The position numbers and the translations under genes are program-made. A DNA stretch of 64,000 nucleotides, taken from Lepidurus packardi. Its lineage: Eukaryota; Arthropoda; Branchiopoda; Notostraca; Triopsidae. Under the pieces are notes generated by a model. The model was not told where the DNA came from, ran no database searches, and saw only the letters and a list, made by a program, of their open reading frames with translations. The stretch's first letter is position 1. Each line of letters opens with the position of its first letter. Shown in pieces: positions 12,875 through 34,055 of this stretch. The stretch covers positions 9,580,351-9,644,350 of the forward strand of contig JAKZAN010000006.1 in assembly GCA_023053545.1 (NCBI GenBank). Direction: 5' to 3'.

Positions 12875-13842
12875 CAGTCAACAGACCAAACGGGCCCAGT
12901 CAACAGACCAAACGGGCCCACTATTTTGAAACATTGCAAACACCCTGTTGAGCTGTTTTCCGGACTCAGGGAACAACACACGATATGGGTAAGACACGAC
13001 ATGTAAATATTTGCAAACATATCTATTGTATTGTAACATATGTGTAATGAAGTATTTATCGTTTTTTGTATTATTTTCCACTTAGAATGGCCCAGAAGAA
13101 ATCAACTGGAAGCGGAAGTTTTGCCCAAAACTATATTAAAAAACTAAGTCTAAGAAGTGGCGACTGAAGTATAGTACGACTGTTAGCTGGATTGGGATGG
13201 ACTTTATATAAGACTGGACAAGAGCATACTAAATATTTATAGTAATACTTCTTTGTACGAGTTTTCACATCGACCTGCTGTATTTATCGTTCTTTGTATT
13301 GTTTTCTTTGTAGAATGGTCGAGAAAAAATCCAACTCGAAGAGGAAGTCTTGCCCTATAACTATGCGCCAGTAATGACTATGTAATCCGACAGTATGGCT
13401 GGTTTGGAAATTTTTTGCCCTGTTATGGAGTACTTCCGTATTCTTCATTATTACCATTGAGTACACGTTTGCACTTATATTCTACACCAATCTGTAACAG
13501 AATAAACTATATTTAATGAAAAAGCCTTTGCTCTTTTTAGCGTGTTTCAATAAAGGTTTACTGTTTTGGTGTTTATCATCAGAGTAACTTAAATGTTTGC
13601 TGTATTTCTGAAAAATTTATAACTACCGAATCTTAGACCTTGATTAGGTCAAAACCATTTAATCGGTTTTACAAAATTTTTGCTTTGCAAATCCCCATTT
13701 TTAAGTTGTAGTTTGGTATAATTATATAGTTTCAAAATATGTTTCAAAATAGTGGGCCCGTTTGGTCTGTTGACTGGGCCCGTTTGGTCAATGGATGGGC
13801 CGTTTTGGCACTGGGCCCGTTTGGGACTGGGCCCGTTCGTCC
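12875..13842. mobile_element. Foldback-like repeat element with terminal repeats built of 22-bp units
   Basis: The left end has two copies of cagtcaacagaccaaacgggcc followed by cactattttgaaac (12875-12932). The right end (13741-13798) is the inverse: gtttcaaaatagtg, then ggcccgtttggtctgttgactg, then more diverged ggcccgttt units to about 13842. Inside, a stretch near 13045-13130 is repeated near 13275-13360 (both contain gtatttatcgtt, a possible AG acceptor, and a short ATG ORF of 19-24 codons). No transposase is present. It abuts the right end of the P element directly. Confidence 0.6.
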
Positions 13843-15195
13843 CTTACCCAAGAGCCCCCTCCTCGAAAGGACAAAGAACGTATAAAGAACGTCTGCTTAT
13901 GGACAGCTTTAGTTTGGAAAGAGCGTCTGCACATAGAGTGTTTAAGTTGGCGAAGAGTGTTTGTTAAATAAGTTATATTAAATCAGTTAATTTCCAACGG
14001 GTACGTATTAAAGCATTAATAACTGGCATTGGAATTGAAAAGCTAAATCATTTTCTAACGTTTCAGAGTCAACATCGTGCCGAATGATCTTATCTTTTGA
14101 TCGTAGGGCCTGTTACGAAGCCTCATTGCCTAGATTTCTCATTCTTGGATAAATGAAGCAAGATAAGTGTGACTTAGTTGGGTAACTTAGAGTATATGTC
14201 GGAAAATTTCGCTTATTCGTTTCCTTTTAGGCTTTGCTACTATGATGCAAGGAAACAGAGCACGCCAGAATACTTAGCAAACGGAGAATGCTTTTGAAGA
14301 AGCTGTTGTTTGGATTGTGAAGATTTAACCTCAGGAAAACATTGAGTAGCTCTTGTAGTTGCTCAATGCCTTGGTTAAGTAATCTCCTGCTGGCTTACAA
14401 TAATTATATTTTAAGTTAGGGTGTTGCCAACTTCAAGGGTTTTCTGTTTTGGTCGTGTGAAAAAGTGGAAGTAGCAGGCTTGGATATTAAGGAAGCTCTT
14501 AGGCAGCCTTTACTCAACACGGTTATTCCTACCTTTGAATGTATAGTCTGCTGGTATGTACGAAAAATTTGCTGAAAATAGGGGTATTTATTGTGTTTTC
14601 GTAATTTCAGGCAAGATTGAAGGGTTAAGTGTGGGAGACTAGTTAAAGACTGGGACCTGATGTCGTTCAGAGCATCTTCTGGGAGGGATTAATGCATTTC
14701 TTGGTGGTTTCTTGCCTGACCAGGCCCAGAACATACTGATGTTGTATTTAAGGTGTATTGTAATTAATTTACTGCGTCGAAGGGATCATAATTGGTCCAC
14801 TGAAAGGTGTCCAAAGTTCAGAAGATGGCAACTTACGGACTCCCTGTGTTTTCCGAAGCCAGCGATTAAAAGAAAACTGCCGTGCAAAGCTCTTGGAAAG
14901 CAAACAGGATAGTATATTATCCTAATCCGGCGCTACCGTTCTCCAGTCAGTGTTAGTGTTGGAGCAGAGTACGCAGCTGTTTTTTTTTTCTTAATTTTTA
15001 ACTAGCCCCTTTTCCCCCTTGTATGTCTTCTTTTCCTTCGTTTTTCCAGTTATTTTTTTTATTTTAGCATAATACTGAAAATGCGGGGGCCACGTCTAGC
15101 GAGATGTCCGTTTCTAGAGCTACATTTCTGGCAGTTGCCACGGTATCTACCACCTTCTTCATACTAAGGTAATAGCGGGCTGTAACTGGAGCGTT
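13843..15195. other. Unassigned intergenic stretch
   Basis: I see no gene, RNA gene or terminal repeat here. Open frames are short and unlike known proteins. Confidence 0.4.
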
Positions 15196-15199
15196 CGCC

Positions 15200-15740
15200 G
15201 GTCCATTTTTTTCAGCAATTTAAAAGTTCTGCTGGGAGTGGTTCATCCTCTAGCCGGTGCTCCAAATATTTTTTAGTAGACCTTGGCTGTAAAAAGAAAG
15301 AGGCTAAGGAAGCCAACGGGTCGTAAATTGACGGTACTGCACCCAAGTGTCTGCCATTTGTCTGTAAGGTTGTTGGACAGCGGTGCTGACATGGAACGTG
15401 TCTATTTCGCAGTAACAAAGGAAGCCGGGGGTCCTATCCAGGTCTTAAGTTCAGGAATGGGTCGTTTCGCTGGTTGGTTGGAATTTCACTTAAATTTTTA
15501 ATGGGGGAGGCCATCCGTTCACGTAAGCGAAATCCTCCTTTAGCAATTCGAGTAGCCGTAACGAGATCCTTGTGGGTTTTTGACTTGTTTACCGATTCAA
15601 GGTAATTGTCAACATACAAGGTGTCCTTGACCTTTGCCGCTAATTCAGGAAAGTCGTCTAAATTGTCCTCTGCGGTTCTGTACACGGTGATGAACCACAC
15701 GGCTGGTGAAAATACTATGAGAAAAACGTGCACCATCGTT
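15200..15740 (-). pseudogene. BEL/Pao reverse-transcriptase relic
   Basis: In two frames the minus strand keeps parts of a BEL/Pao RT: a YVDNYLESV catalytic-site motif followed by GGFRLRERMASP (about 15500-15640), then further along SIYDPLASLASFFLQ (about 15260-15320), which matches the xxYDPLGFLAPF segment after the RT. Frameshifts separate them and no LTRs, gag or integrase remain. It was once part of a pol gene copying a retrotransposon RNA. Confidence 0.65.
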
Positions 15741-15749
15741 TCGGGCATT

Positions 15750-16205
15750 TGGACATTACCGGGTCACAAGATTAACCGAAAGGCTGACCGATCCCTTGTG
15801 TGGCCAGCACTTGATTACACATTTTCTCAATGAATCCGAAATACTAGAATCTGTATCGGAATTGATATCAGTATTGAGGCCCAATTTGGAGACACCGCGT
15901 TCTAACGAAGTCTCCAATTTGGGCATCAAACTCACTGAACCCCAAACACTAGCATCTGCATCAGAATCGACACGCGACCCAACTCCGCACGAATTAGTAG
16001 CCATACCGTGCGATCAGTGGCTCTTGAGAACGAATGACGTGTTCTTAGTTGTATGGAGCGTACTCGTCTAATCACCTGCGGGGAGGGGGGAGATTAAATA
16101 AGTGGGAGTTCGTTATCGATACACGGGGTTAGTTTAAGGCAGTTCATATTAACCTGCTGTCATTTCATGTTCATAGCCAATGATCTGCTTATGTTCAGCA
16201 GCAAA
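15750..16205. other. Unassigned stretch between BEL relic and viral fragment
   Basis: Both strands hold short open frames (for example 15796-16071 plus) that resemble nothing I recognise. No repeat ends were seen. Confidence 0.3.
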
Positions 16206-16559
16206 AGCTTATGGTGGTTAAAGTCGGTTTCTTGCTTCGCAACATACTCGTTCAAGCACTTGGCCACCACATCACGCCAAGCTCGGCCTTCGCCCGGCGA
16301 ACCCAATTTTGGACCAAGAACGGGAAGCCGCCGTTAACACGATATCCATATAACGGACGAGCTTCGGAGAAAACGGAGAAACCGCTCAACTGGCTTTGGT
16401 ACACTACTTGGTTGTCACAACTTCCATTCCAAAACCGTTCGTTGCCCGTGGACATGAGCCAAAGCCCAACGTCTGGACTCTTCGCCCCCCAGTTGAGCCA
16501 GTTCCTGGCGCTCCGAAGGATGCTGTCCACCGTGTAGTTGTCCGCTCTAGCTGAATAAT

Positions 16560-16573
16560 GGGGGGGGGGGGGG
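16560..16573. repeat. G14 homopolymer inside the viral fragment
   Basis: Fourteen G in a row (plus strand), read as a proline run on the viral strand. Such runs slip easily in replication and in sequencing. Confidence 0.9.
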
Positions 16574-16849
16574 TCTTTCGAGATGTCGAAGATCTTGCGT
16601 TCTTTTCCCAGGAAAGCCTCAAGGTCGCGAACTTCATCAAGGTAGCTTCTCAGTAGAGAACACTGGGCGTTGGATTGGCACCCAATACAAGTGACTTCAT
16701 TGTCCTTTAGTTCGGAGTGTATAGAAGCCGCGAGATCCACACCCTCGGCGTCGTAGACGAACTTGTCAAAGTACCCCTGCAGCTCCTTCCAAATGAACTC
16801 GCCATTGGCCCCGCAGCTGACTGTTTTTCTCTCGAGATCAATGCCGCAC

Positions 16850-16918
16850 CCGAGGGAATTCGCCCCCACCCCGAGGGAATTCGCCCCCACCCCGAGGGAA
16901 TTCGCCCCCACCCCGAGG
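16850..16918 (-). repeat. 21-bp tandem repeat at the E/NS1 junction of the viral fragment
   Basis: Just over three copies of ccgagggaattcgcccccac plus one base (unit 21 bp, 7 codons). They encode a repeated heptapeptide (GVGANSL) exactly between the last E transmembrane anchor and the NS1 start. The unit is in frame and copies are identical or nearly so. Flaviviruses have no such repeat at the signal-peptidase junction. Confidence 0.9.
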
Positions 16919-18585
16919 GGAAACATGATAAACATAGCCCCAGCGGCCCACAAACAAAGGGTCAGTTCAGTGCTACGGGTCTGCATGCCTAGGAAAAGCA
17001 GGAGCCCCCCAATCCCGAGAAGCGCCAGGCGATTAACGCCCCCAAACAGGACATTGAAAACCCCCCCTACAGTTGAGTGGAGAGTTTTTGTAAGCGACGA
17101 GAAAAAACCCCCCACGCTGTTAAGGTCCCAGTGGTCCGTGCCGGTTATGGCTACCCTTCGGGCATTCTTCCAAACAGTGGAGAAAGCCTCCGCGACGTTT
17201 GACCCGGGCTGGGTCCAGAGGTAGGCGAGGTTCTCGACTTGGATCAAGGCTTCACCAGGATCGACTCGCACCTCAGCCTCAAAATCATCGCCACTGTACA
17301 CCAGATTTGACGTAAGAATGACTCCTCTAGGCTTGAGCTTGTCTCCAGCCGCGGTGACCTTTATCGAAACTCGGCAGTTGTCCTCTTTGCCCTCGTTCTT
17401 AACGGAGAAGACCACCGTATTGTGTTGAGTGCGACTCGGTTCCTTCACCCAGCGGAACTTCTTCCCTTGGCAAAAACCAAGGGTGACTCCTTTAATCCTT
17501 AGGTTTTCCAATTGAAGTCTGCACGTGACGTGGGCAGATTCACTCAGAGCGTATGATAGATCGCTTCCATCGGCAAAGCCGCGAAGGGTTTCAACTCCTT
17601 CGAGAGCTTTCTCGAAGGCCCCACCCTGTTCCTCAGCAACGCTATAGCGGATTGTTACGCCGGAAGCTCCACCCCAATCGATGAATCTCTCCAAGTTTCT
17701 CCACTCACCGTTCCGGTAGCGCCAGGGTTCAGCCAGGTCGTGGATCCAGTTTTTATTGACAAGAAAGACGTTAAAATCTTCCTTCTCCTGGTCTTTAGAG
17801 TTGAAAAAGAATCCCAGAAACGAATTTTCAAAGCTATTGCCCGAGTAGGCTCTGCAGATGTATCCCAGTGTTCCGTAGTCCCCAAGGGAAACAGTCCCGT
17901 CCCCACTTGAGGCATCAAACGAAATCGTGTGGGAGATTTCCTCGAAGGCCAGCTTACGGGCCTTCTCAGTTGCTTCCGTGTCATTTCCTCCTTCCAGGAT
18001 GGTTCTCTCTAGTCTTTTAATGGAGTCATTGCTGACGAGGGCTCCGTGGACGTTGAGCCGTATGGTGTATCGGGTCTTCCCTTGGTCTACCGAATAAACA
18101 GCAAACTTCTTATCATAGGGTTGCACCTTCACGCAGCCGACGACTGAACTTTTTGCAAATAGCCCGCAGCCATTCCGGGCTAGGAGAGGAAAAGCGGTAG
18201 GAGAGGAAAAGCGGACTGAAATACTGGGAGTAGGATTTTTAGTGTTGCCGCCGAAGTGTACTTTGCAGGCGCCTACGTTTTCGATTCCAGCCACTTACTC
18301 CTGTCGTTCCAAAGGTCATTTCCATACAAGCTGGTATATAGTATGTGGGGATGGGGGAGATTGGTGCATGCCACTTCTTAAGTCTTTTAAGTGGAGCAAA
18401 ATAGGAAGTGATTTAGGGATTTCTCCACAAATGCGTTTATTTTACTCATCAAGCCTTCACCTTCAAACCCCACTCGCATCCATGACGAGCACAATTTCGT
18501 AAGATTTTTTGAAAGCTCCAACTGGGCTTCCACTAAAATATTCTGAATCGTCGAATTCCTAAAAAAAAGGAAAGAACATACCAAC

Positions 18586-19134
18586 GTGCGATCGCAAACC
18601 TACGAACTGAATTTGATGCCTTTGACTCCCTACTTCGGGAACGCCACGCTGAGTCCATTTGAGCCTCGTCAGTTACCCAAGATTAAGGAACTTTTGGCTG
18701 ATCTCAACGCCACTGATGATTGGGAGATCTCTGTTGCCAAAATGAAGGAAGCTGTCGCCCAACAGAAGTTACTATTCTTGGACGAAAATTCCGAAATTCA
18801 ACACCATGTTTCTGCCCGACTCAACATCTACCTCGCGGCCGGGGTAGTTTTCTTTATCGTGCAGATCGCCTTGTTCGCCTTTGGTGCATACAAACTATGG
18901 AGTTACTTCAGCCAACGAAACGACTTAGTCCAGACCGACCAGCAACGGGATCTGAACCAACGAACTGCCGACCTTCTAGAGGCCCAGAAGAACTTAACCC
19001 AGGAGCTGAATGCCCTAAAGAGTCGGAATTTAGAGCTGGATCTAGAGGTCGGAAGACTAACCACCATCATGAAGCTGGAGTCCGAAGTAGTTAAAGATCG
19101 ACTACTAGCCTTTGAACAGAAATTGTTTAAATAG
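18586..19134 (+). CDS. Unknown membrane and coiled-coil protein fragment (possibly envelope-like)
   Basis: An open frame of about 182 codons without a convincing ATG at its start; the first internal ATG is at 18616. It contains an N-glycosylation-type site (NATD), one strong transmembrane segment (IYLAAGVVFFIVQIALFAFG, about residues 80-99), then a cytoplasmic-looking heptad-rich coiled coil to the end (LLEAQKNLTQELNALKSR). The layout, an ectodomain, one membrane segment and a C-terminal tail, resembles the end of an errantivirus- or chuvirus-type envelope protein, but no diagnostic motif confirms this. It lies on the opposite strand between two viral fragments, and its stop codon (19132-19134) nearly coincides with the breakpoint of the NS3 piece. 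Confidence 0.4.
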   Translation: MRSQTYELNLMPLTPYFGNATLSPFEPRQLPKIKELLADLNATDDWEISVAKMKEAVAQQKLLFLDENSEIQHHVSARLNIYLAAGVVFFIVQIALFAFGAYKLWSYFSQRNDLVQTDQQRDLNQRTADLLEAQKNLTQELNALKSRNLELDLEVGRLTTIMKLESEVVKDRLLAFEQKLFK

Positions 19135-19139
19135 TTTGG

Positions 19140-20660
19140 CTGTTTTCGTGGTTCTTTTAGGATGCGCTGGTATGTATCGTCAAAGTTCCCGCTGTGAAGC
19201 TCCTGTGCGTTTTCCCCCTCGCGCAAGGCGTCTTGAGCCAAGTCCCTCACCTCGCGGATTGAAGAGCAGAAAACACATACGTTCTCGGGCCCTACTTTGG
19301 CTCTAATCTTCCTGGCTGAGAAATCATTGTCCTTTCCTTGAAAATAAGACTTAGAGATGTCCCGAGGGCTAATCCTTGTTTCCGCAATGGGGTAGTTGCT
19401 TTCGCAGTTTTCACTGCTTCCGGGAGGAGTGGCGGTGCAAAAGAGGGCTGATGTTCTCCCATCCCTGACTTCGTTCGCTATCCAGCCTCGGAGAGCTATA
19501 AAGGAGGGGTCCACGTATTGGGCTTCGTCCATGATGTAGAGGTCAAAGAACCTGTTGCTGCCGCGGAGAACCTCGGCAAAAAACGTGGCATGGCATCCAA
19601 CACTGACGAGGCTCTTCCTTTTTACGCTGTCGGTTGCTCCCAGATCTTTGAGGCCTGCAAGCAGCTGCTCCTTGACCACTCTCGTAGGGGCTAACACCAG
19701 CATTCGTTTTCCATTGGCCCTTCCGAGCTCGACCAGCCTGCGGATGACCCGGGTGGTCTTCCCGCCGCCGGGGTGGAGGGTGTTCCAAGCGAGTCTCCCG
19801 GCCTTGAGAGCGCACTGCTCCTCCTCCGGGGTTAGACCCACGTCTGGACTGAGCACTTGGTCTTCATCCACTTTGGAGACGAGACTGACGTATTCGCCGT
19901 CGTGGCCGTAGATTCCGAAGCCATAAACGCCAATGAACTCGCCGTAGGAGTTGACTATGGGGCTACCTGAAGTACCAGGGGGAAAATCCTTCTTGATCGT
20001 TAACCTGCGTCTCTTCCCGTCCACCAAGTTGATCATGGCTTCCCCTGCGTTGACGGATACCCGCTCGAGGAGGTCTCCAGGAACTAGGGCGCAGAGTTGG
20101 ATGACTGAGGTGTTTCTCCCCCTACCCTGCCAAGCCCCGTTGTAGGTGATTACGTCATTGGTTATGGACTCCTGGAACGGAAGGAGATATCGGTCTTGAG
20201 AACGAGGCGGCTGCCCCCAGTAACGTGCCAACTGGTGTGAAGAACGTTATTGATCACTGTGCCTGCTCCTTTCTGTTTCTTCTTCCCTAGGAAGTTGGTT
20301 TGGAAGATCCTGTAAATGCCTGGTTCAACTACTCCATGGTGAGGCCCCATGCTGGTAACGTTCCCTCTTAGGGTATCTTCAAAGGACCTGAGCTTACCGC
20401 GGCTGAGTACGAAGGCCAGCAGTGCAACAATAGCGCCGCCAGAGAGCCCTCCGAGCATGATGCCGCAAAAAAACGTGCCGACGACCCAGGGGGAACCTTG
20501 TACAGCCCCGAGAGGCTGCGCGAACGATGTAACCTGTATGGAGCCATGTTCGTCAATGGAGGCGTGAAAGTCTTCTTTGTCCGTGAGAACTTCATCGGTG
20601 GGCAGGTAGCTTAGAGAACACACCCGCTCAATCTGCAAGTCCCCGCTGTAACTAAGGCTG
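19140..20660 (-). pseudogene. Endogenous flavivirus-like element: NS2B to NS3 protease-helicase piece
   Basis: Reading right to left: a hydrophobic NS2B-like segment (about 20420-20490), then the start of the NS3 serine protease with the catalytic-His motif HTSWH (near 20240). A frameshift occurs between about 20160 and 20230. The second frame continues with the protease Ser motif GTSGSP (19960-19980), a helicase Walker A (GGGKTT, 19755-19775), motif Ia (LAPTRV), motif II as DEAQ instead of the usual DEAH (near 19525) and motif III TATPPGS (near 19430). It breaks off near 19145, so helicase motifs V and VI are missing. NS3 processes the polyprotein and unwinds RNA; this copy is broken by the frameshift and truncated at both ends. 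Confidence 0.88.
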
Positions 20661-20834
20661 CCGAAGAGGATGGAGTATATGGAGTAGATGGTAGTATATA
20701 TGTACATTAAACTTGCTGATATACCCCTTTGCTTATAGAATTTTTATATCGCAGCAGCATCATCATTAGCATCAATTAACATCAGCATATAGGCAAAAAT
20801 AGCGCACCAATTTCGTCTTTCATGTAAACACCTA

Positions 20835-21952
20835 ATATAGACTTTTGGTAAAAACAGTACCTAATACCCACTGCCCTTCCACTCGATGACCACGATGGTA
20901 TTTGCGCCTACCAAATTTACTTTCATCGATTTCAACTGTGACACCAATGCCACCCAACTTTTCTTTCTTGTCAATAAACGCATTCAATACTACTTCTCGA
21001 CAAAAGCACGCCCAGTCGACGAACGTATGGTTGCTTATGCGAATCATTCTTTTCATCAAACGAAACGAAGCATTCTCTACCCATAGGCAAACGAATTCGA
21101 GTATCTAATTTGTAAAAGAAATGCGATAAAAATGAAATTTAGAGGAAACGTATCAAAAACTAATACCTGTTTTATTTCCAAGTGTGATCTCGCGAAAAAC
21201 GTACCAAATCGATATGACACCTTATGACCACAGGCCTTCCGTTTTTGCTTTCGAACTGACACGCTGTTATTACAGTACCAACTTCTCCCATCGATTGTTT
21301 CCGAATTTACGCACAATTGTAAAAACGAACCACATTTTTTGCATTTATAGCTCCCAACGGAAGGAACCATTCCCCAAACTACTAATTGCTCATGAAGTTT
21401 GTCCTTATCTTCACACAAATTTACTTTCATCGATTTCAACTGTGACACCAATGCCACCCAACTTTTCTTTCTTGTCAATAAACGCATTCAATACTACTTC
21501 TCGACAAAAGCACGCCCAGTCGACGAACGTATGGTTGCTTATGCGAATCATTCTTTTCATCAAACGAAACGAAGCATTCTCTACCCATAGGCAAACGAAT
21601 TCGAGTATCTAATTTGTAAAAGAAATGCGATAAAAATGAAATTTAGAGGAAACGTATCAAAAACTAATACCTGTTTTATTTCCAAGTGTGATCTCGCGAA
21701 AAACGTACCAAATCGATATGACACCTTATGACCACAGGCCTTCCGTTTTTGCTTTCGAACTGACACGCTGTTATTACAGTACCAACTTCTCCCATCGATT
21801 GTTTCCGAATTTACGCACAATTGTAAAAACGAACCACATTTTTTGCATTTATAGCTCCCAACGGAAGGAACCATTCCCCAAACTACTAATTGCTCATGAA
21901 GTTTGTCCTTATCTTCACACAAGTTAGCGATATCGTCGAAATTAAGATCCAT
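20835..21952 (-). pseudogene. Truncated Merlin (IS1016/ISXO2-like) transposase
   Basis: ATG near 21952 (MDLNFDDIANLCEDKDKL) leads into a Cys-rich N-terminal zinc ribbon (YKCKKCGS, later WYCNNS and RKACGH), then an intron-like gap and the segment GVTVEIDESKFGRRKY followed by RGHRVEGQWV (about 20870-20930). VEIDESKFG..K is the hallmark first-Asp region of Merlin/DDE_Tnp_IS1595 transposases. The remaining catalytic part is absent: the frame runs out near 20835 and sequence towards the viral fragment is unrelated. A 504-bp internal tandem duplication repeats the zinc-ribbon exon. This copy cannot make a full transposase. Confidence 0.72.
20913..21922. repeat. Direct tandem duplication, 504-bp period
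   Basis: The block beginning aaatttactttcatcgat at 20913 is repeated from 21417, apparently without differences over about 500 bp; the second copy diverges after cacacaa at about 21922. It duplicates most of the Merlin zinc-ribbon exon and following intron. Confidence 0.9.
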
Positions 21953-22330: not shown

Positions 22331-22857
22331 AGTACTTTTTATAAATAATTTATCTTGATGAATAAAACTTGCTTTTCTGTTAGCTGTGCTGCATTAGCAA
22401 ATATCATTTGCGCAGATATAGCTTCGAGCATAGCATATCCGCAGCACACACACACTCCGAAAACAATATGGCCGCTTCGATGTTTTCATAATAAATTTTC
22501 GGTTGCAAATTGGTTAAGAACAAATTGTACGCGCTGATCTACTTAAATTAACGGGAATGCCCGTGTGAACTTACCCAAAATACGTCACTTCCACTTAGTG
22601 TGTACATATTACTGTAGCTCTTATTATATTCAGTGTTGCCAGATTTTTTAAAGATCGCCCGCCAAAATCGCTTGTAAAGTAGCCAAACTTCTCGCCAATT
22701 TTTTTTAAAAAGAAGTCGCCAAAGTACTCGCCAAAATACATAGATAATCTCGTCGAAGCCCGATAATACTATAACTATATTTTAAAAATGATGCTTTATA
22801 CAATTAAGTTTACATACACATTAGTCAGGGTCAATACAAAATTTAAAAACAAAATAT

Positions 22858-24945
22858 TTACATAACATAATCAGATAAATCCTCATCGTCATTATTTTCG
22901 TACATATTGCTATTCATTTTCTCCAACATTTCCGGTGATGGCTCAAACAATTGGCAACAAATTCCTTTAATTTTGAGACCATATTTTACATGCAAAATTT
23001 GCCTTAAGGTGGAACTCGACATCCTGTTTCTCAGCTTTGACTTTATAATGTTAACATGACTAAATACTCTCTCGCATGCAGCGTTACTAAAAGGTAGTGA
23101 AAGCAGAGATAAAACAGTTAATGCTAAATCTTGGAAAGGTTTTTCACCGATAGAATCGGTATACGTAAACACTTTGGCCCAAAATTCCGAACTGTCACAC
23201 AGAACATCTTCGCTGACATAATTTTGCCATTTAACACAAAGAAAATTACGCCACTGGTTTTCAAGTGTTGTTATGCATGCAGTCTGGGGCAAAAAAGGCA
23301 AGTCTTTGAATTTCGGAGGGTTATTGCTCAAGATCGCGTGCGGGGAATAAAAACCAAGCTTTCGAAAAAGTTTTAAGTTAGTAGGTAGCCGTAAAAGTAA
23401 CTGCTTGGTTAATTCCACTAAAAAATTAATGCAAATTTTTCTAACTGCGTCTTTCTTTTCCTCACATGTAGCAGCCGATAAAGCCTGTTCAAATGAAAAT
23501 CCTAGATCTATTTCCCCATCCTTCATCATGTTATGGTCAACAATAACGGTTGACGTTATATCACTTTGGATGACTTTCGGGACAATGAAGCGTTTTATCA
23601 AGGTACCTACGTAGATCTCGAGTTCTTGGAATAACATGAAACTATCAATTGAATCTTTCTGAAACTTCGTGTTAAATTTTTCAACTTCTTCTAGTATGGG
23701 TTGCAAAAACATAAAATATAAACGATTTGGCTCGTCGCGATACATATCACGCAAAAGATTTGCTGTGTAACAGCGCTCTTTTGTAACTATAGTTTCAAAG
23801 AAAGCTTTCAAAACATCCCATTGGTCTAAAATTCTAGTAATACAACGTGATATGGACAGCCAACGAGTTGATGCAGGTGAAACAAACGTCAGTGGGGTAT
23901 TAACAGAATCAGAATCACCGGCATCGATAACATCGTAGACCTCCCGATACAATGTTCTGCGCATGGGACTATTTGAAAACCAGTTATACGTTTCTCTAAT
24001 CATGAATTCAATATGTTTTGGAAAAACTAAACTAGCTTTCGAGGCTGCTAAATGTAAAGAGTGGCAAACGCACTTAACCAAAATTAAGCCAGGAACCTGT
24101 TCTCGAAGCTTTGTGTACAATGAATTATTTGCGCCACACATTGCACTTGCACCATCAGTCCCTATCCCGACAAGGTTTTTCAAAGACAAACTCTTCTCGG
24201 ATAAGAAACCTGTTACGGCTGTGTATAGGTCGGCTGCCGTAGTTCCACCTGGCATGTCAATAATACCAAGAAACGTTGTTTTAATAGTGCGTGCAGTTTT
24301 TGAAAAGAATCGCACACATAAACATAACGATTTGGATACAGATACGTCGGTAGACTCGTCAAGAAGCAAAGAAAACATAGAGTCACCGATTTCATTAAAA
24401 AGTTCCTTTTCAAGGCAAGGGGCAACAACCTGCTTAATTATTGCCGTGCATTTGGTGCGTTTTAAGCGTAAATCGTCACCGGTAGGGCTAAGCAAACCGC
24501 TTGCCTTCAGAAGATCGGTAAGGTGGTCCGTAATCCTGATACTGCAGTGGGTGGCCACAAAAACTGCGAGCTTTATTTCCATCGTCTTCAATTCTTTTGA
24601 AGCAACGGAAACCGTGAAACCGGATTGTTCAAGGCGGCTCTGCGAATTTACGTTTGCCCGATCCAAATTTGACTTGTGCTGTTTTGTTTCCGAGTGTTTC
24701 CGTAAGTCGCTTAAGTGGGACCTTATTTGCTTACGGCAAACTCTGCAAAAAGTCTGCGTAGGATCGTCCGCAACTGGAGCAATCCATCCTATAAGGATTC
24801 AGAAGAAGTCCTATAGCTAACTGTGCACGCACGAATCTCACAGAAACTCGCGTTAAAACGGAAGATGAAATATCTTACCTTTAAGATCGGAAAAGGTTTC
24901 CCACTCCTTGCGATAAAGCCTTTTATCGTTCGCGTATTTTCCCAT
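22858..24945 (-). CDS. hAT transposase with BED zinc finger (665 codons, open)
   Basis: Exon 1 (24879-24945, ATG 24945, MGKYANDKRLYRKEW) joins exon 2 (22858-24788) through a 90-bp GT-AG intron; the joined length is exactly divisible by three. Residues about 35-60 form a BED-type finger (CRVCRKQI, HLSDLRKHSETKQH). The RNase H-like core carries LLDESTDVS (about 170) and GTDGASAMCG (about 232), with STRWLSI further on; the C-terminal dimerisation region has NAACERVFSHVNIIKSKLRN (about 600). These are hallmarks of ZBED/SCAND3-like hAT transposases, which cut and paste hAT DNA in the nucleus. No stop or frameshift interrupts it, so this element could be active. Confidence 0.9.
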
Positions 24946-24959
24946 CCTCTAAACTGCTG

Positions 24960-25270
24960 TACTATACCTTCCAAAAAAATTGAGTATAGGGAAACCACAG
25001 TGGTCTAATCCCCTACCCGTGGGATTAATTAAAGACTGCTTAGCGAACCGGTTTGTAGGCCTCCTGTCTAAAAACCAAACCGAAACGTATAGAAAGCGGA
25101 ATCCGTTTTAACCCTGGGCTGTAGAACAGAGAACTAGGATTCTACTTTCCTTAGTTTTGGTTTGGTTTTAGAGAGGAGCGGGTTCGAGCGAGCAAATTTT
25201 AATTAATCCCACGGGTAAGGATTAGCCCACTGTGGTTTCCCTATACTCGATTTTTTTGGAAGGTATAGTA
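24960..25270. mobile_element. MITE with long terminal inverted repeats (311 bp)
   Basis: The left end tactataccttccaaaaaaa continues as gagtatagggaaaccacag and acccgtgggattaatt. The right end is the inverse (aattaatcccacgggtaagg, cactgtggtttccctatact, ttttttggaaggtatagta). Inverted repeats of about 75 bp flank a 150-bp middle with no ORF. It sits 15 bp upstream of the hAT transposase ATG. A diverged half-copy is at about 40296-40385. Confidence 0.85.
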
Positions 25271-26330
25271 CGTAGATTCACGTAATGTTTGAGGTTGGAT
25301 ATTGTAGTAGTCCACTTAAACTTAGCTATTTTTATCTCGTACACAAAACTCATCTCGTGGCTACACGTTCATTCTCTGTATCTTAGAAATCGAACCCTTT
25401 GCCTTTTTATACCTCTTGTGATAAACAACGTACTTTTGGCGAATACTTGGAAAAGTCGTTTTCACTTTCGCGACTAGGCTACGACGAAGCGTTGGGGGAG
25501 ACAAAAAGAAGAAAAAACTACCTGGGAGGCTGTACAAGATCATGAAAATATTTGGATTTCTTCTGGTTGACTATGGCTGACAGTTTTCTCAAGAAGATAT
25601 AGTTCCTCTTGTATGTTATCATGTGTCCTTTTTATAACTGCTCGAAAGATAGGCCCCGACCTTGGGCAGTCGAGGAAGAAAGCACAATTCAGAACTTTTA
25701 GAATAGCGGAAAGTAGACAAAGTTGAAGGATGTAAAAACATAAACTAATTGGAACCGGAGCAGAAGAATGAAATGTGTGGTGCTTTTGCGCTATTTTCGA
25801 TGAATTTTAGGGGTGTCAATATGCCCACCTGGAAAAACCATCGACAGGGCAACTTCGCTATTAAACCGTAATATCCAGAAACAGAAAAATAAGCATATAA
25901 CTATACTGAGACTGGGGAGCAAAAAGTGTGTTTCTACAGGTTTGCATCAATTTCCTAACGTCTCGAAACATACTTATCCATATTGCTATCGTTTTTCGTT
26001 TGAGCCTCATTTTTATATTTCCCGCCATGAGCAAGGCGTTGATCAAACAGGTCTGACCAATGATGTCCTCTCAGAGAACTAGCCTGCAGCTTTCGTAAAG
26101 TGATAACAAAAGGCCCATAAGGAAGGGGCTACATCCTGCATGTTCCCTCTCTATATATCTCTACTCCGTCTCTACTCTACACTATGAACTATTTTGAGAC
26201 CATGGAGCAGAAAATGCGTTTGTACAGGCTTGCTTTACTTTCATTTAATCAAAACAAAAAAGCAAAGATACAGTAAAGTCGCCAAACAAACCGCCATCGC
26301 CAAATGCCCAAAAATTGTCGCCAGTTCATG
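25271..26330. other. Non-coding part of the hAT element
   Basis: No protein-like frame was seen. The last 110 bp contain the right sub-terminal repeats (cgccaaacaaaccgccatcg, gtcgccaattttggcgagaa). Confidence 0.5.
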
Positions 26331-26529
26331 TTTTCAAGTCGCCAATTTTGGCGAGAAATCGCCAAGTCTGGCAACACTGATTATATTTACAGCTTCGAAT
26401 GCTTAAATGACCATTTGATATATCCCCATTCCTGAACCACCACGCAGCGTTGCCGGTTTGCTACAAAATGAAGCTGGAGGTGGGATAATAGGAAAAAAGA
26501 GGCGGGAAAATCAAAAATTCTTTGAAAGT

Positions 26530-30313: not shown

Positions 30314-33244
30314 CTATTTTTTGGTACCTTTCCCTCCCTTTCTTTGTGAAGATTTCTTTTTGGACGCAATTGCATCTAGTACAAACTGAGGTTCTCGAGG
30401 ATCTAGGTGACGAGCAAGCCTAGAATCAGACAGTTCTGGGAGAAAACTTGACTCAAAGAAGATTTGCAATTTTGGTTGCATCTGTTCCTCCCAGAATTTC
30501 TGATCTCGATCAATCCGCTCAACGTGCATCTCATTAGGGCTCCAAACCACGAAATCGCACCACAGCCGTCCCGTCACCTCAAGCTGTCCTTGCACTTGAT
30601 AAAAGTAATTATGTGTTCGTTTCAAACGAAATGCATTCCCTTTTACGCGTTCCAGACACAGTGAACTTCCTTTGGGGCCATTGAGCAAGTCGTCGAAGGA
30701 CTTGGCATCTTTTGCGACTTCTGGACACTTTATTTCAAGGACACCATCCTCTCCAACTATACCGTCGGGTGATGCACCGAGATAACCGATACTTGGATGC
30801 ACCCATAAACCGGACCGTTTTACAGTTACTCCCTTCATTTCCTCATAAGCTTGCCTAGCATTCCCTTCGTTATCATTCCCCCACTTAGTAGCGGACCCAG
30901 ACCAATGCTTGGGATGCATGATATCTTTTAAAACGTTTGTCCGTGAGGTTGTACTCCGTAATTTGCAAATTTTGCCAAACATCGAGGCAGTAATTCTACT
31001 CCTCCTAGCTTCCTTCCACAAATCGCACTCGGCTTGGTCTCTTGTTTTCTGCTCGAGATCGACAATTTGTTCTTGACTTAGCTGTAACTGTTTTTTGATT
31101 ACGGAACTCTCGGTAGCAAGTTCATTAGTATCAAGATCAGGTCGTCCATAATTTACGTCTGTTCCATTCGCTTCAGGCTCTGGTCGACGACTCTGAACGG
31201 AAACATCATCGCTGTTCTGCATTTCGCGTGAACGAAGATCCCTTTCTCGGCCTCGCAAGATATCTGACGTGTTACTGGCTGCAAACTGGTCAAGTAACGA
31301 CGAGCCATGATTGTACTTTTTGAGTACATGTGCATGAAAGCCACGCCCATAGTTAAAAGCCAGTACGGCACCATAACACCTGTGAGTATAGGACCCTCTT
31401 TGCGAGCGCAAGATTTGCTTCCCACCGACCATTTTGGCTACAGTTGACATGAATCGCTCAGCAGAATTAGTCGTTACCTCTAGCAACAAACTGCTAGCTT
31501 TCTTTGTAACGAAAGACAATGCATAGCACACGTCGGTATAAACAGCGTAGGGCACTGTTGTGCGTAATTTCTGACCCACAAAACTACAACCTTTTTTCCC
31601 AGGCAATGGCGCTCTACACATTGTATGATCTGCTAGTAAACAATGTCTCGGGCCATTTTCCAATGCACTGCGTAAATCCTGTACATTTCCATTCACCAGA
31701 GCGTTTTTCTTTATTGCACCTCTTGCAGCTTTGGTAAGTTTTGCAATCATGACTGGGGTCAGTACTTTCCTATAACTAGGACCCTTCGTTTGCAATTTAT
31801 AAAGCTTGCTAGTATAGTTCTTTACAACGTGGTTCGAACATTCTAGTTTCATTGCAAGTTTTTGAGTCCTTGGCGTATCGGCCAGAATTTGGTTGTACGT
31901 TGATGAATCGCCATCTCCAATGTAATGAGAAAAACGAATGCCATGACGCCTTTCCGATTCCCGAAAACCGGTAGCAATAATATCTGTTTCCATCGCTGTT
32001 GATGGTCCAGTCCAGTTCTTGTAACAGTGGTGCGTAGGTGGAGCGCAATTTGCCTTTGTTGCTTTGGAACACACGGAACAGAACTTATTCCGAACACCAA
32101 CATATAAAACTTTATTGGTCTGAGCGCCAATCAGTACTCCCACACCAGATTTGGCCGTATACCGTGTTCCGTGACTGCGTTGAGACCATCCCCCGTCACC
32201 GACTACAGTAATTTGTGGTGTCCCATCTTGATCTACTTTTCCTAACGTTACAGCTGCTTCCCTTTCCTCCAGAACAGTTTTTAGCATGTCATTACCGGCT
32301 TCAAATTCCCATACCTTTCCAACAATTCCCTCCTGTCGGACGAACGAAGGTCTTGTCATACAAGGAATATCAAGAATGGCAAGAATTTCTTGGAGATGAT
32401 GATGCCCATTGCCCGTGGCCATCATCCCCCAGGCAAGAAGAGTGTTCACCGAAATTTTCTGCTCTTCGTGTGCTGGTACAGCGTTCACGCTTTGCAAAAA
32501 AACTTTACGTTTTGTGGACATTGCTCGAACCCTAGGTTCTGGTTCTGAATTTACTGTGTCTTTCGTACCGCACTTCGGGCAAACAAAAACAACAGAAGTC
32601 CACGCACCATTGCGTATTTCTCGGTGAAAACGCATGATACCTTTCTGTGCGCATTCATCGTGGTGTTTGTTCACAACTTCCAAAGTGCGTCCCATGACAT
32701 ACGCCATGTTGCAAATTCTTCTACCAACTAACCCTTTTCTCAATTCTGGCTGGCAGTAAAGCGTACGCTCTGTAATAAGAGGAGTTTCCTCTATTTCGGC
32801 CTGATCGTTTACCCTACCCACAAACCACAACTCTGGATCAAAACTCCCGTAAGGTACAGAATGACTGTCGTTATTATTCGACATTAGTGCTTCAGCATCG
32901 GAATTTGCGTCTTCTTCTACCAATGTGTCTTCTTCATCTGAACCGACAGCACTAGTAGAGGAGAGACACGACAGGAATGACGTAGGTTTGGGGAAGGACA
33001 AGCCAATTATTTCAGTGGATACTTCCTGAGAAGAACATGCATTGGGATTCGATAACGATACACATGCTTCATTTCTAATATCTTGAAAACTAGTGCCCAG
33101 GGTTTGCTCTGTCGTCAAAGCTAACTCACTGACGTTTTCAAGACATTGTACCTTGAGAAGTTTGTTAGGGACTCCATCAGTGACATTCCCAGACTCGGAT
33201 TTCCTTTTTCTTCTGGGACGAACTCTATTTCTTTTACTTCCCAT
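30314..33244 (-). CDS. Transposase (Mutator/Kolobok-like DDE) fused to a YqaJ-type nuclease
   Basis: A single 976-codon frame from ATG 33244. A basic start (KRNRVRPRRKRK) suggests nuclear import. Residues about 140-660 resemble the animal Mutator-like transposase domain: VGDGGWSQRSHG (about 350), CSVCSKAT, IGDGDSSTYNQI (about 446), LECSNHVVKNYTSKL and NSAERFMST (about 593), giving candidate D-D-E residues. After a charged linker, residues about 730-940 form a YqaJ/lambda-exonuclease-like PD-(D/E)XK domain: RRSRITASMFGKI, GYLGASPDGIV, LEIKCPE and the YQVQGQL box. A Lys-rich tail ends it. YqaJ proteins are exonucleases of phage-type recombination; here the domain may process ends during transposition (inference). 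No break is seen. It is the only gene of the element. Confidence 0.85.
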   Translation of the reverse strand: MGSKRNRVRPRRKRKSESGNVTDGVPNKLLKVQCLENVSELALTTEQTLGTSFQDIRNEACVSLSNPNACSSQEVSTEIIGLSFPKPTSFLSCLSSTSAVGSDEEDTLVEEDANSDAEALMSNNNDSHSVPYGSFDPELWFVGRVNDQAEIEETPLITERTLYCQPELRKGLVGRRICNMAYVMGRTLEVVNKHHDECAQKGIMRFHREIRNGAWTSVVFVCPKCGTKDTVNSEPEPRVRAMSTKRKVFLQSVNAVPAHEEQKISVNTLLAWGMMATGNGHHHLQEILAILDIPCMTRPSFVRQEGIVGKVWEFEAGNDMLKTVLEEREAAVTLGKVDQDGTPQITVVGDGGWSQRSHGTRYTAKSGVGVLIGAQTNKVLYVGVRNKFCSVCSKATKANCAPPTHHCYKNWTGPSTAMETDIIATGFRESERRHGIRFSHYIGDGDSSTYNQILADTPRTQKLAMKLECSNHVVKNYTSKLYKLQTKGPSYRKVLTPVMIAKLTKAARGAIKKNALVNGNVQDLRSALENGPRHCLLADHTMCRAPLPGKKGCSFVGQKLRTTVPYAVYTDVCYALSFVTKKASSLLLEVTTNSAERFMSTVAKMVGGKQILRSQRGSYTHRCYGAVLAFNYGRGFHAHVLKKYNHGSSLLDQFAASNTSDILRGRERDLRSREMQNSDDVSVQSRRPEPEANGTDVNYGRPDLDTNELATESSVIKKQLQLSQEQIVDLEQKTRDQAECDLWKEARRSRITASMFGKICKLRSTTSRTNVLKDIMHPKHWSGSATKWGNDNEGNARQAYEEMKGVTVKRSGLWVHPSIGYLGASPDGIVGEDGVLEIKCPEVAKDAKSFDDLLNGPKGSSLCLERVKGNAFRLKRTHNYFYQVQGQLEVTGRLWCDFVVWSPNEMHVERIDRDQKFWEEQMQPKLQIFFESSFLPELSDSRLARHLDPREPQFVLDAIASKKKSSQRKGGKGTKK

Positions 33245-34055
33245 TAGAACAAAGTCACGCTAAAATACGATATAAGAATACTCTTTCCGTGAACAAAAGT
33301 AACGTTGCGAGTACTTTGCTGTCCAACTTGGAAATAAAGATACAAAGCTGGATTCGAACATGAAATGTGTTTTGTCCTCTGTGACGGATTCTCTGCTCAG
33401 TTTGTAAAATGTGAGGTCGTATGTTGTGAAACTGCAACATTTTTCCGTTGAAAAACGATTGCGGAAAAGCAAGTGTACTGAACTGTTGGGGAAAATGTGG
33501 CAAGAAACTTGTAGTTTGAAGTAATTTTAATTTTCGGTACAAACTCTGTTCATTTGCGATAACAAACCTGAGGAATTCTCAATGTGTCAAACCTCAACAT
33601 CAGTTATATGTCTATTAGCTAGTAAAAAGAACTATGTATAACTTATATGCTGCTTTAGGTTGTCAGTTATATGACACCTTTGATTGTTTCAGCAAGACCA
33701 ATCGTCTTTTTGTATTGTTCTGCTTACTTTTTGCTATATATGACTTACTTTGATAAAGTAAATTAGAGCTATGGAGTTATAGCTTTATTTATTTAGTAAG
33801 CTGAAACGTGGCAATTGAAATAATGAGGTAGTGTAAGTTTTATTTGGTCTGTCTCATTGTGTTACACAGCCCATATATAGGCAAAAGCAGCTTTCAAAGG
33901 TTGGCGCCGTTTGGCCGTGCAGAAGCAAATCGCCGTTCAAAAGTTGCGCTGTTGTGCTATTGCACTGTCATATGCAAGGCTTTCCCAAAAAACAATCCGA
34001 CGCCAACGCCATCCAGTGAGAGTTTAGTATCAATAAGCTAAGGTATACGGGAGCC
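33245..34055. other. 5' flank of the transposase-nuclease gene, within the TTAA element
   Basis: Non-coding; expected to hold the promoter. No clear TATA-initiator pair was assigned. Confidence 0.35.

What the first reader, a model, noticed from the sequence alone, without database searches (positions are those of the whole stretch)
16206..20660. Flavivirus-like endogenous element in two pieces, in non-viral order
Seen: on the minus strand NS2B-NS3 (20660-19140) precedes E-NS1 (18294-16206), while in flavivirus genomes E-NS1 comes before NS2B-NS3. Known: flaviviruses are RNA viruses without a DNA stage, so copies must arise through host reverse transcriptase; this window is full of active-looking LINE and BEL elements. 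Inference: either two integrations or one integration later rearranged. NS2A is absent from both.
Basis: partly seen in the sequence, partly recalled or inferred. Interest (0 to 1): 0.85.

Follow-up and report, generated by a model that had tools for sequence, protein, structure and literature searches.

The report
Virus fossil in circularly shuffled order
A stretch of an otherwise unseen flavivirus lies in an arthropod chromosome, most likely put in once, with its genes in a circularly shuffled order around a scrap of a mobile element, which suggests that it passed through a ring of DNA before it became heritable.

Summary
On the minus strand, flavivirus NS2B-NS3 (19150-20675) precedes E-NS1 (16373-18180), far beyond chance. 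Between them lie 953 bp (18206-19158) from an env-like gene of a dispersed repeat (probably a retroelement), in the opposite sense.

A 98.9% identical inverted copy about 88 kb away has the same order and keeps more virus upstream (NS1 end, NS2A). The two pieces are complementary: about 289 nt of NS1 is missing between them. A copy of the target repeat that is uninterrupted at both breakpoints (C2:852978-856421) shows that the whole block lies in one site, with a 132-133-bp deletion and no target-site duplication. Best reading: one insertion of a circularly permuted virus/mobile-element hybrid, as a DNA ring opened inside NS1 would give. The ring is inferred, not seen.

The genome holds 8 flavivirus loci from at least 3 virus lineages (synonymous sites saturated, protein conserved), including two tandem arrays, and NS3-NS4 between LTRs of a BEL/Pao-like element with a 5-bp target duplication. 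Rearranged, duplicated flavivirus fossils near LTR elements are known in mosquitoes; the permuted single insertion with its empty site is the unusual part.

The parts
19150..20675 (-). Flavivirus piece 1: NS2B and NS3 protease plus first part of helicase; frame broken once in this copy (open in the sister copy)
   Evidence: Pfam Flavi_DEAD 6.2e-32, Peptidase_S7 1.1e-5; PDB NS3 4.3e-42; homology ends 19150 and 20675 against the C2 copy
18206..19158 (+). Mobile-element-derived piece between the virus pieces: C-terminal part of an env-like gene, antisense to the virus, truncated at both ends
   Evidence: 97-100% matches to L008 and L041; the 666-aa ORF at L041 matches PDB entries named 'fusion protein', 2.5e-7, but no Pfam family; that the repeat is a retroelement is inference
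18302..18573 (.). 272-bp insert inside the env-like piece, absent from the L008 and L041 copies; origin unknown
18181..18214 (.). Two head-to-tail copies of a 17-bp word at the env/E junction (templated-filler-like)
   Evidence: sequence, compared
19148..19160 (.). NS3/env junction with short shared sequence (5 nt certain, up to 9)
   Evidence: against C2, C4, L008 and L041
16373..18180 (-). Flavivirus piece 2: E from the fusion loop (about residue 103) to NS1 about residue 164; open in this copy, frame broken in the sister copy
   Evidence: Flavi_glycoprot 2.1e-21, Flavi_E_stem 1.7e-19, Flavi_glycop_C 2.2e-8; PDB E 1.8e-58; end set by array 1 homology
16845..16910 (-). 21-bp tandem repeat at the E/NS1 boundary (NSLGVGA units; coordinates approximate); the sister copy differs by a 42-bp indel here
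13900..16360 (.). Left part of the host repeat (the target) into which the block was inserted; continuous with the right part at C2:852978-856421
   Evidence: 97.8% to L046 979-3454; empty site; the ORF that spans the breakpoints in L046 has DUF5641, 8.3e-10
13779..20675 (.). Extent of the inverted segmental duplication with C5:9689106-9695976
   Evidence: 98.9%, 17 substitutions and 6 indels

Best explanation
The element is a non-retroviral endogenous viral element from an undescribed flavivirus lineage. Proposed course: (1) a host reverse transcriptase copied a viral stretch running from E to NS3 (inferred); (2) the DNA ends were joined through a captured env-like fragment of a mobile element, giving a circular hybrid (inferred from order, junctions and complementary ends); (3) the ring opened inside NS1, losing about 289 nt, and was sealed into a chromosomal break in a dispersed BEL/Pao-like repeat, deleting 132-133 bp and leaving no target-site duplication (site and deletion shown; repair pathway inferred); (4) the locus was duplicated in inverted orientation (shown) and has since changed without detectable constraint (few sites). 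It is unlikely to make a working protein. If it has a role it would be RNA-based (antisense or piRNA source), which is untested.
For: Same order in the sister copy, which keeps NS1 from about residue 260 and NS2A. The pieces are complementary with 289 nt between them; for two random same-strand fragments about 0.025. Outer flanks are continuous in an uninterrupted repeat copy; other copies run through each breakpoint. Virus-env joints carry shared or repeated short words. No unpermuted copy of this lineage among the matches listed (the tool's counts are lower bounds). At C4, virus is joined to BEL/Pao-like sequence and to the inner LTR edge. Circular virus-LTR hybrids are reported in mosquito cells (PMC6797480, abstract and passages).
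Against: No circle was seen, and no RNA, small-RNA or read data are at hand. One insertion of several linear fragments, or tandem duplication followed by two deletions, could give the same order. The env-like fragment is antisense to the virus, which simple template switching from a retroelement mRNA onto viral genomic (+) RNA would not give. The env-like repeat has no Pfam match and no reverse transcriptase or LTR was shown next to it, so 'retroelement' is inferred for it. Complementarity alone is modest evidence (about 2.5%).
Confidence: 0.6

Rival explanations
1. Several linear DNA fragments (two viral, one env-like) were joined and sealed into one chromosomal break at once; the order is accidental.
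For: End-joining signs at the joints; one target site with deletion and no target duplication.
Against: The viral fragments lie in the same orientation and are complementary to within 289 nt: about 0.025 by chance.
Confidence: 0.15
2. One insertion in viral order (E to NS3) was tandemly duplicated head to tail; the outer parts were then deleted, leaving NS1-NS3 of one unit next to E-NS1 of the next.
For: Tandem arrays of virus-derived units are common here: two flavivirus E arrays on C5, a doubled NS3 unit on C4, a rhabdovirus N array on C2.
Against: Needs two deletions, each from the target/virus border into NS1, whose viral ends happen to fall 289 nt apart, plus capture of the env-like piece at the unit joint. 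No remnant of a full unit was seen in either copy.
Confidence: 0.15
3. Two independent integrations at nearly the same place.
For: Repeated endogenisation is real in this genome: at least three virus lineages by E, within 1.6 Mb of C5.
Against: The second event would have to hit the edge of the first, leave no original target sequence between, and supply the complementary part. Both outer flanks are one repeat copy.
Confidence: 0.07
4. Assembly artefact: viral sequence wrongly joined to host contigs, or the sister copy a misplaced haplotype.
For: Window and sister copy lie on the same contig and differ by only 1.1%; no reads were available.
Against: The junctions recur in both copies with private differences, and homology of the copies stops at different host sequences.
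Confidence: 0.03

Closest known systems
Flavivirus-derived nrEVEs of Aedes mosquitoes (PMC7448346, PMC8235865; passages read)
   [quoted passage not shown] one of 6,593 bp
   Different: Virus lineage here is far from those found by search (at most 46% identity in NS5). Here a permuted block with a mapped empty site and a captured env-like piece; long tandem arrays; NS3-NS4 between BEL/Pao-like LTRs
Circular viral DNA-retrotransposon hybrids of mosquito cells (PMC6797480; abstract and passages read)
   Same: Virus joined to retroelement sequence; a circle would give the permuted order seen here
   Different: There episomal and detected in infected cells; here a germline insertion, circle inferred only
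Shrimp circular viral copy DNA (PMC8507497; abstract and passages read)
   Same: Circular viral copy DNA and EVE in a crustacean
   Different: A DNA parvovirus; no permuted germline copy described in the passages read
Ostracod flaviviruses Photeros and sea-firefly (PMC9854234; passages read)
   Same: Among the NS5 relatives found (43% and 41% identity)
   Different: Found as transcripts; not shown to be the sister group
Survey of endogenous flavivirids, Bamford et al. 2022 (recalled title, seen only as a reference in other papers; not held)
   Same: Endogenous flavivirids in animal genomes
   Different: Not read; cannot say whether this host or these loci are included

Membership tests
Flavivirus-derived endogenous viral element | Homology to flavivirus E, NS1 and NS2B-NS3 | tested here: met
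   Flavi_NS1 matches array 1 and the sister copy, and the window NS1 piece aligns to array 1
Flavivirus-derived endogenous viral element | Phylogenetic place within flaviviruses | tested here: inconclusive
   NS3 and NS5 trees of 12 rows each: the copies form a clade (100/100) among flavivirus rows, deeper forks unresolved
Flavivirus-derived endogenous viral element | Integrated in host DNA | tested here: met
   Host repeat on both sides and uninterrupted copy elsewhere
Flavivirus-derived endogenous viral element | Genome order as in the virus (typical, not defining for an EVE) | tested here: not met
   Order NS2B-NS3 then E-NS1 in window and sister copy; colinear in other loci such as C2
Germline copy of a circular virus-retroelement hybrid | Virus joined directly to retroelement sequence | tested here: inconclusive
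   NS3/env and env/E joints are direct, but that the env-like repeat is a retroelement is inferred: no Pfam match, PDB 'fusion protein' only
Germline copy of a circular virus-retroelement hybrid | Pieces complementary, outer ends adjacent in the virus | tested here: met
   289 nt apart, NS1 about 164 and 260
Germline copy of a circular virus-retroelement hybrid | One target site | tested here: met
Germline copy of a circular virus-retroelement hybrid | Episomal circle in infected animals | not testable with these tools
   no read data
LTR-retroelement-borne virus copy (C4 locus, not the window) | LTRs and target-site duplication around the virus | tested here: met
   Three 255-bp direct repeats, paired 5.7-5.9 kb apart in elements elsewhere, 5-bp duplication CAAAC; internal DUF5641 3.1e-22
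LTR-retroelement-borne virus copy (C4 locus, not the window) | Primer-binding site after the 5' LTR | tested here: not met
   Virus abuts the inner LTR edge; the C16 element has further sequence there that looks like a primer-binding site (recalled motif)
EVE-type piRNA cluster | Antisense piRNAs from the locus | not testable with these tools
   no small-RNA data; only clustering on C5 is seen

The most novel reading that the evidence does not exclude
This arthropod repeatedly wrote pieces of RNA viruses (one flavivirus group, and a rhabdovirus nucleoprotein) into its germline through virus/mobile-element hybrid DNA, partly as rings, with the flavivirus pieces mostly in a 1.7-Mb stretch of one chromosome, and amplified some of them into tandem arrays: an inherited, updatable store of virus sequence comparable in logic to immune memory, with the window block as a direct fossil of the circular intermediate.
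Probability: 0.22. Interest if true: 0.85.

Novelty: new variant of a known kind. Interest (0 to 1): 0.62.

Why it matters
How RNA viruses without reverse transcriptase enter germlines is usually inferred from nearby transposons. Here the permuted order, the complementary ends, the mobile-element piece at the joint and a preserved empty site together point to an intermediate like a DNA ring. The same genome holds a copy between LTRs with a target-site duplication. The loci also preserve at least three lineages of an otherwise unseen flavivirus group and give a natural test of whether arthropods outside the mosquitoes keep virus-derived sequence as heritable antiviral memory.

Tried and rejected
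Rejected: two unrelated insertions (flanks and complementarity); NS2A never present (the sister copy keeps it); the middle piece as an ordinary intact transposon inserted later (it starts inside the gene, stops shortly after it, and the viral sequences on its two sides are not adjacent in the virus); a working protein from the window copy (NS3 frame broken; dN/dS between sister copies 0.75-0.93 where defined, on few sites); array 2's 597-bp dispersed segment as an LTR (its aligned ends do not look like LTR ends).

Led nowhere: E-NS1 protein search (0 matches at E <= 0.001; the 7994 candidates sharing most words were scored; I suspect, untested, that the NSLGVGA repeat filled the list); NS5 scan of viral contigs (0 loci); COX1 pseudogene for host identity (258 aa; the best 120 of 7376 matches are listed; the few named ones are one crustacean and several insects, so arthropod only); Pfam for the 652-aa ORF (none). 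The Mononegavirales L family was asked six times and the totivirus RdRp family once; all unanswered because the machine was busy. A rhabdovirus N array was found by another way, but other virus families remain untested. Two recalled papers, the 2022 survey of endogenous flavivirids and one on crustacean flaviviruses, are not held.
Full report
What is there. The window is G000:C5:9580351-9644350 of a 108.6-Mb assembly in 344 contigs. On its minus strand, ORF 20246-18903 carries NS3 protease and DEAD domains (Flavi_DEAD 6.2e-32, Peptidase_S7 1.1e-5), and ORF 18294-16252 carries E and its stem (Flavi_glycoprot 2.1e-21, Flavi_E_stem 1.7e-19, Flavi_glycop_C 2.2e-8). Solved flavivirus NS3 and E are matched at 4.3e-42 and 1.8e-58. 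The order NS2B-NS3 then E-NS1 is real and is not that of a flavivirus genome.

Exact boundaries. Viral homology runs 20675-19150 and from about 18180 to 16373. The segment 18206-19158 matches dispersed repeats: ten places elsewhere hold both of its ends near each other, and L008 and L041 match at 97-100%. In L041 the same sequence ends a 666-aa ORF that matches PDB entries named 'fusion protein' at 2.5e-7 but no Pfam family, so I read it as the C-terminal piece of an env-like gene, on the + strand, antisense to the virus; that the repeat is a retroelement is inference. A 272-bp insert inside it is absent from L008 and L041. At the NS3/env joint virus and env-like gene share GAACC, and up to nine bases if the integrated virus matched there. 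At the env/E joint a 17-bp word stands twice; at the NS1 end an eight-base word is repeated.

Sister copy. Window 13779-20675 is repeated in inverted orientation at C5:9689106-9695976 with 17 substitutions and 6 indels in 6,913 aligned columns. The sister has the same order and continues upstream into NS2A and NS1 from about residue 260, so NS2A was lost only in the window. Over the stretches that both copies keep, each has private frame breaks: NS3 in the window, E-NS1 in the sister. So these stretches were still open when the locus was duplicated. The sister's extra upstream part changes frame once more, near the NS1/NS2A border.

One block, one site. In array 1, which is colinear over E-NS1-NS2A, the end of the E-NS1 piece and the start of the sister's NS1-NS3 piece lie 289 nt apart. 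Two random same-strand fragments of these lengths would be that close, without overlap, with a probability of about 0.025. The flank left of the block (window 13900-16360) and the flank right of it (sister, 9688070 down to 9687238) match one continuous stretch, C2:852978-856421 (L046), at 97.8% and 98.2%, with 132-133 bp between them missing at the virus locus. Of 40 scored rows (of 190 candidates), 2 run through the left breakpoint (the C2 copy and C23), and the C2 copy plus 13 others run through the right one (one more only just), so the uninterrupted state is not peculiar to one copy. An ORF over the breakpoints in L046 has DUF5641 (8.3e-10), a domain that in this window goes with Pao peptidase and integrase, hence 'BEL/Pao-like'. 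I see no target-site duplication. The block is best read as one insertion into an existing repeat by break repair.

Mechanism. A ring made of virus (E to NS3) closed through the env-like fragment, and opened inside NS1 on insertion, gives order, orientation, complementary ends and single site in one step. Circular hybrids of virus and LTR retroelements are reported from infected mosquito cells, by reverse transcription and recombination (PMC6797480; abstract and passages), and circular viral copy DNA from shrimp, for a DNA virus (PMC8507497; abstract and passages). The ring itself is inferred. Against simple copy-choice: the env-like piece is antisense to the virus, which would need the viral minus strand as template or joining at the DNA level.

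Other flavivirus loci. Searches with the window proteins and with Flavi_NS5 and Flavi_NS1 models show six loci besides window and sister copy: about C2:1337466-1344220, NS1 end to NS5 in two overlapping open frames, ending at a hAT element identical over 3,749 bp to window 22631-26379; C5:11316500-11319100, NS5; C4, NS3-NS4 twice; C5:10461330, E with a weak prM match (0.0019, below cut-off); array 1 (C5:10402488-10438357, period 5,338, units 99.6-99.9% alike, 6-7 copies of E parts); array 2 (C5:11139011-11175770, period about 3,721, units mostly 98-99.9% alike, the first down to 94% in its non-viral part, 10 copies). Window, array 1 and array 2 lie within 1.6 Mb of C5: 0.0006 for three random points, 0.006 for 3 of 5; this is a post hoc test that does not allow for repeat-rich regions.

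Virus lineages. Of 21 codon comparisons, 13 between loci have 73-94% of synonymous sites changed but only 5-14% of nonsynonymous sites; window against C4 is intermediate (dS 0.58, dN/dS 0.056); 7 within duplicated copies have at most 2.1% synonymous change and, summed, 12 synonymous and 23 nonsynonymous changes. The 13 most likely diverged as living viruses under strong constraint, so separate lineages were integrated: at least three by E alone. The 7 show no clear constraint, on few sites. In NS5 and NS3 trees of 12 rows each the copies form one clade (100/100), with deeper forks unresolved; P0011-P0013 and the N-terminal half of the C5 NS5 were left out of the NS5 tree, and rows without NS3 out of the other. 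Best identity in NS5 is 46% to an unnamed assembly protein, 44% to Donggang virus. The protein search could not reach polyproteins above about 2,850 aa.

C4: virus between LTRs. At C4 the order is a 255-bp repeat, about 660 bp of BEL/Pao-like sequence (DUF5641 3.1e-22; an integrase end by eye, no Pfam match for that part), 2.3 kb of virus, the repeat, the same again, the repeat. The repeat stands in pairs 5.7-5.9 kb apart elsewhere and alone in at least three places, so it is an LTR. The outermost flanks show a 5-bp duplication (CAAAC), the mark of integrase insertion. Virus abuts the inner LTR edge to within a base, where the C16 element goes on with what looks like a primer-binding site (recalled motif), and meets the internal part around a repeated GGCCACG. 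Virus is again antisense to the element. Capture during reverse transcription and later insertion of virus into a resident element both remain possible; the joint at the LTR edge favours the first.

Beyond flaviviruses. The empty-site repeat lies beside a rhabdovirus nucleoprotein array: L046 ORFs match Rhabdo_ncap at about 2e-66, and C2:856364-870540 holds nine copies about 1,650 bp apart, 98-100% alike. Tandem amplification of virus-derived genes is thus not special to the flavivirus. Because of this I raised the odds of the novel reading from 0.20 to 0.22.

Novelty. Flavivirus EVEs clustered near LTR elements and often rearranged or duplicated are known in Aedes albopictus (PMC7448346; passages). 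The listings of ten full-text searches showed me no paper on a circularly permuted EVE with empty site or on such loci in a host like this; most subscription papers are not held, and the 2022 survey of endogenous flavivirids is not held. Host: arthropod by a COX1 pseudogene read with the invertebrate mitochondrial code; species not identified.

Noticed in passing
C2:856364-870540 (start in L046): Tandem array of nine rhabdovirus nucleoprotein copies (Rhabdo_ncap about 2e-66), about 1,650 bp apart and 98-100% alike with open frames, right beside the uninterrupted copy of the flavivirus target repeat; more distant relatives at C3:2833037 and C6:277678.
   Followed up: partly
C5:10402488-10438357 (L030-L034) and C5:11139011-11175770 (L036-L040): Two separate tandem arrays that both amplify flavivirus envelope-gene parts (periods 5,338 and about 3,721 bp).
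   Followed up: partly
C4:2506810-2513499 (L044, L045): Flavivirus NS3-NS4 twice, between three LTRs of a BEL/Pao-like element, with a 5-bp target-site duplication around the whole.
   Followed up: yes
L031:3751-5706 (-), C1:10626979-10642296, C2:785596-796195, C23:19211-25000: A 652-aa ORF without Pfam match, inside a 2,475-bp element (ends TGTGGAGAA/TTCTCCACA, GATC duplicated) that interrupts E in array 1. 25 matches genome-wide, also in tandem arrays with open frames. Possibly a viral nucleoprotein (recalled impression only).
   Followed up: partly
window 22631-26379 and C2:1344221-1347969: hAT element identical over 3,749 bp in both places, at C2 directly at the end of the NS5 copy: probably a recently active transposon.
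   Followed up: partly
window 20912-21925: 510-bp direct repeat, two copies 504 bp apart, 99.8% alike, in the DNA right of the point where the window loses the virus.
   Followed up: no
window 12884-13789: Stretch of 906 bp with perfect 51-nt terminal inverted repeats at the edge of the inverted duplication.
   Followed up: no
window 30314-33259 (-): Single 981-aa ORF joining a Mutator-like transposase to a YqaJ / viral alkaline exonuclease domain.
   Followed up: no
L041:1904-3526 (+): ORF matching Baculo_F (7.3e-13) upstream of the C5 NS5 copy, on the same strand.
   Followed up: no
window 46919-49506 (-): Two adjacent ORFs of 421 and 450 aa without Pfam match.
   Followed up: no
G000 C52, C214, C43 and C1, C2, C4, C6: COX1 search: three contigs match without mitochondrial codons (probably bacterial contamination); many mitochondrial COX1 pseudogenes in chromosomes.
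   Followed up: partly
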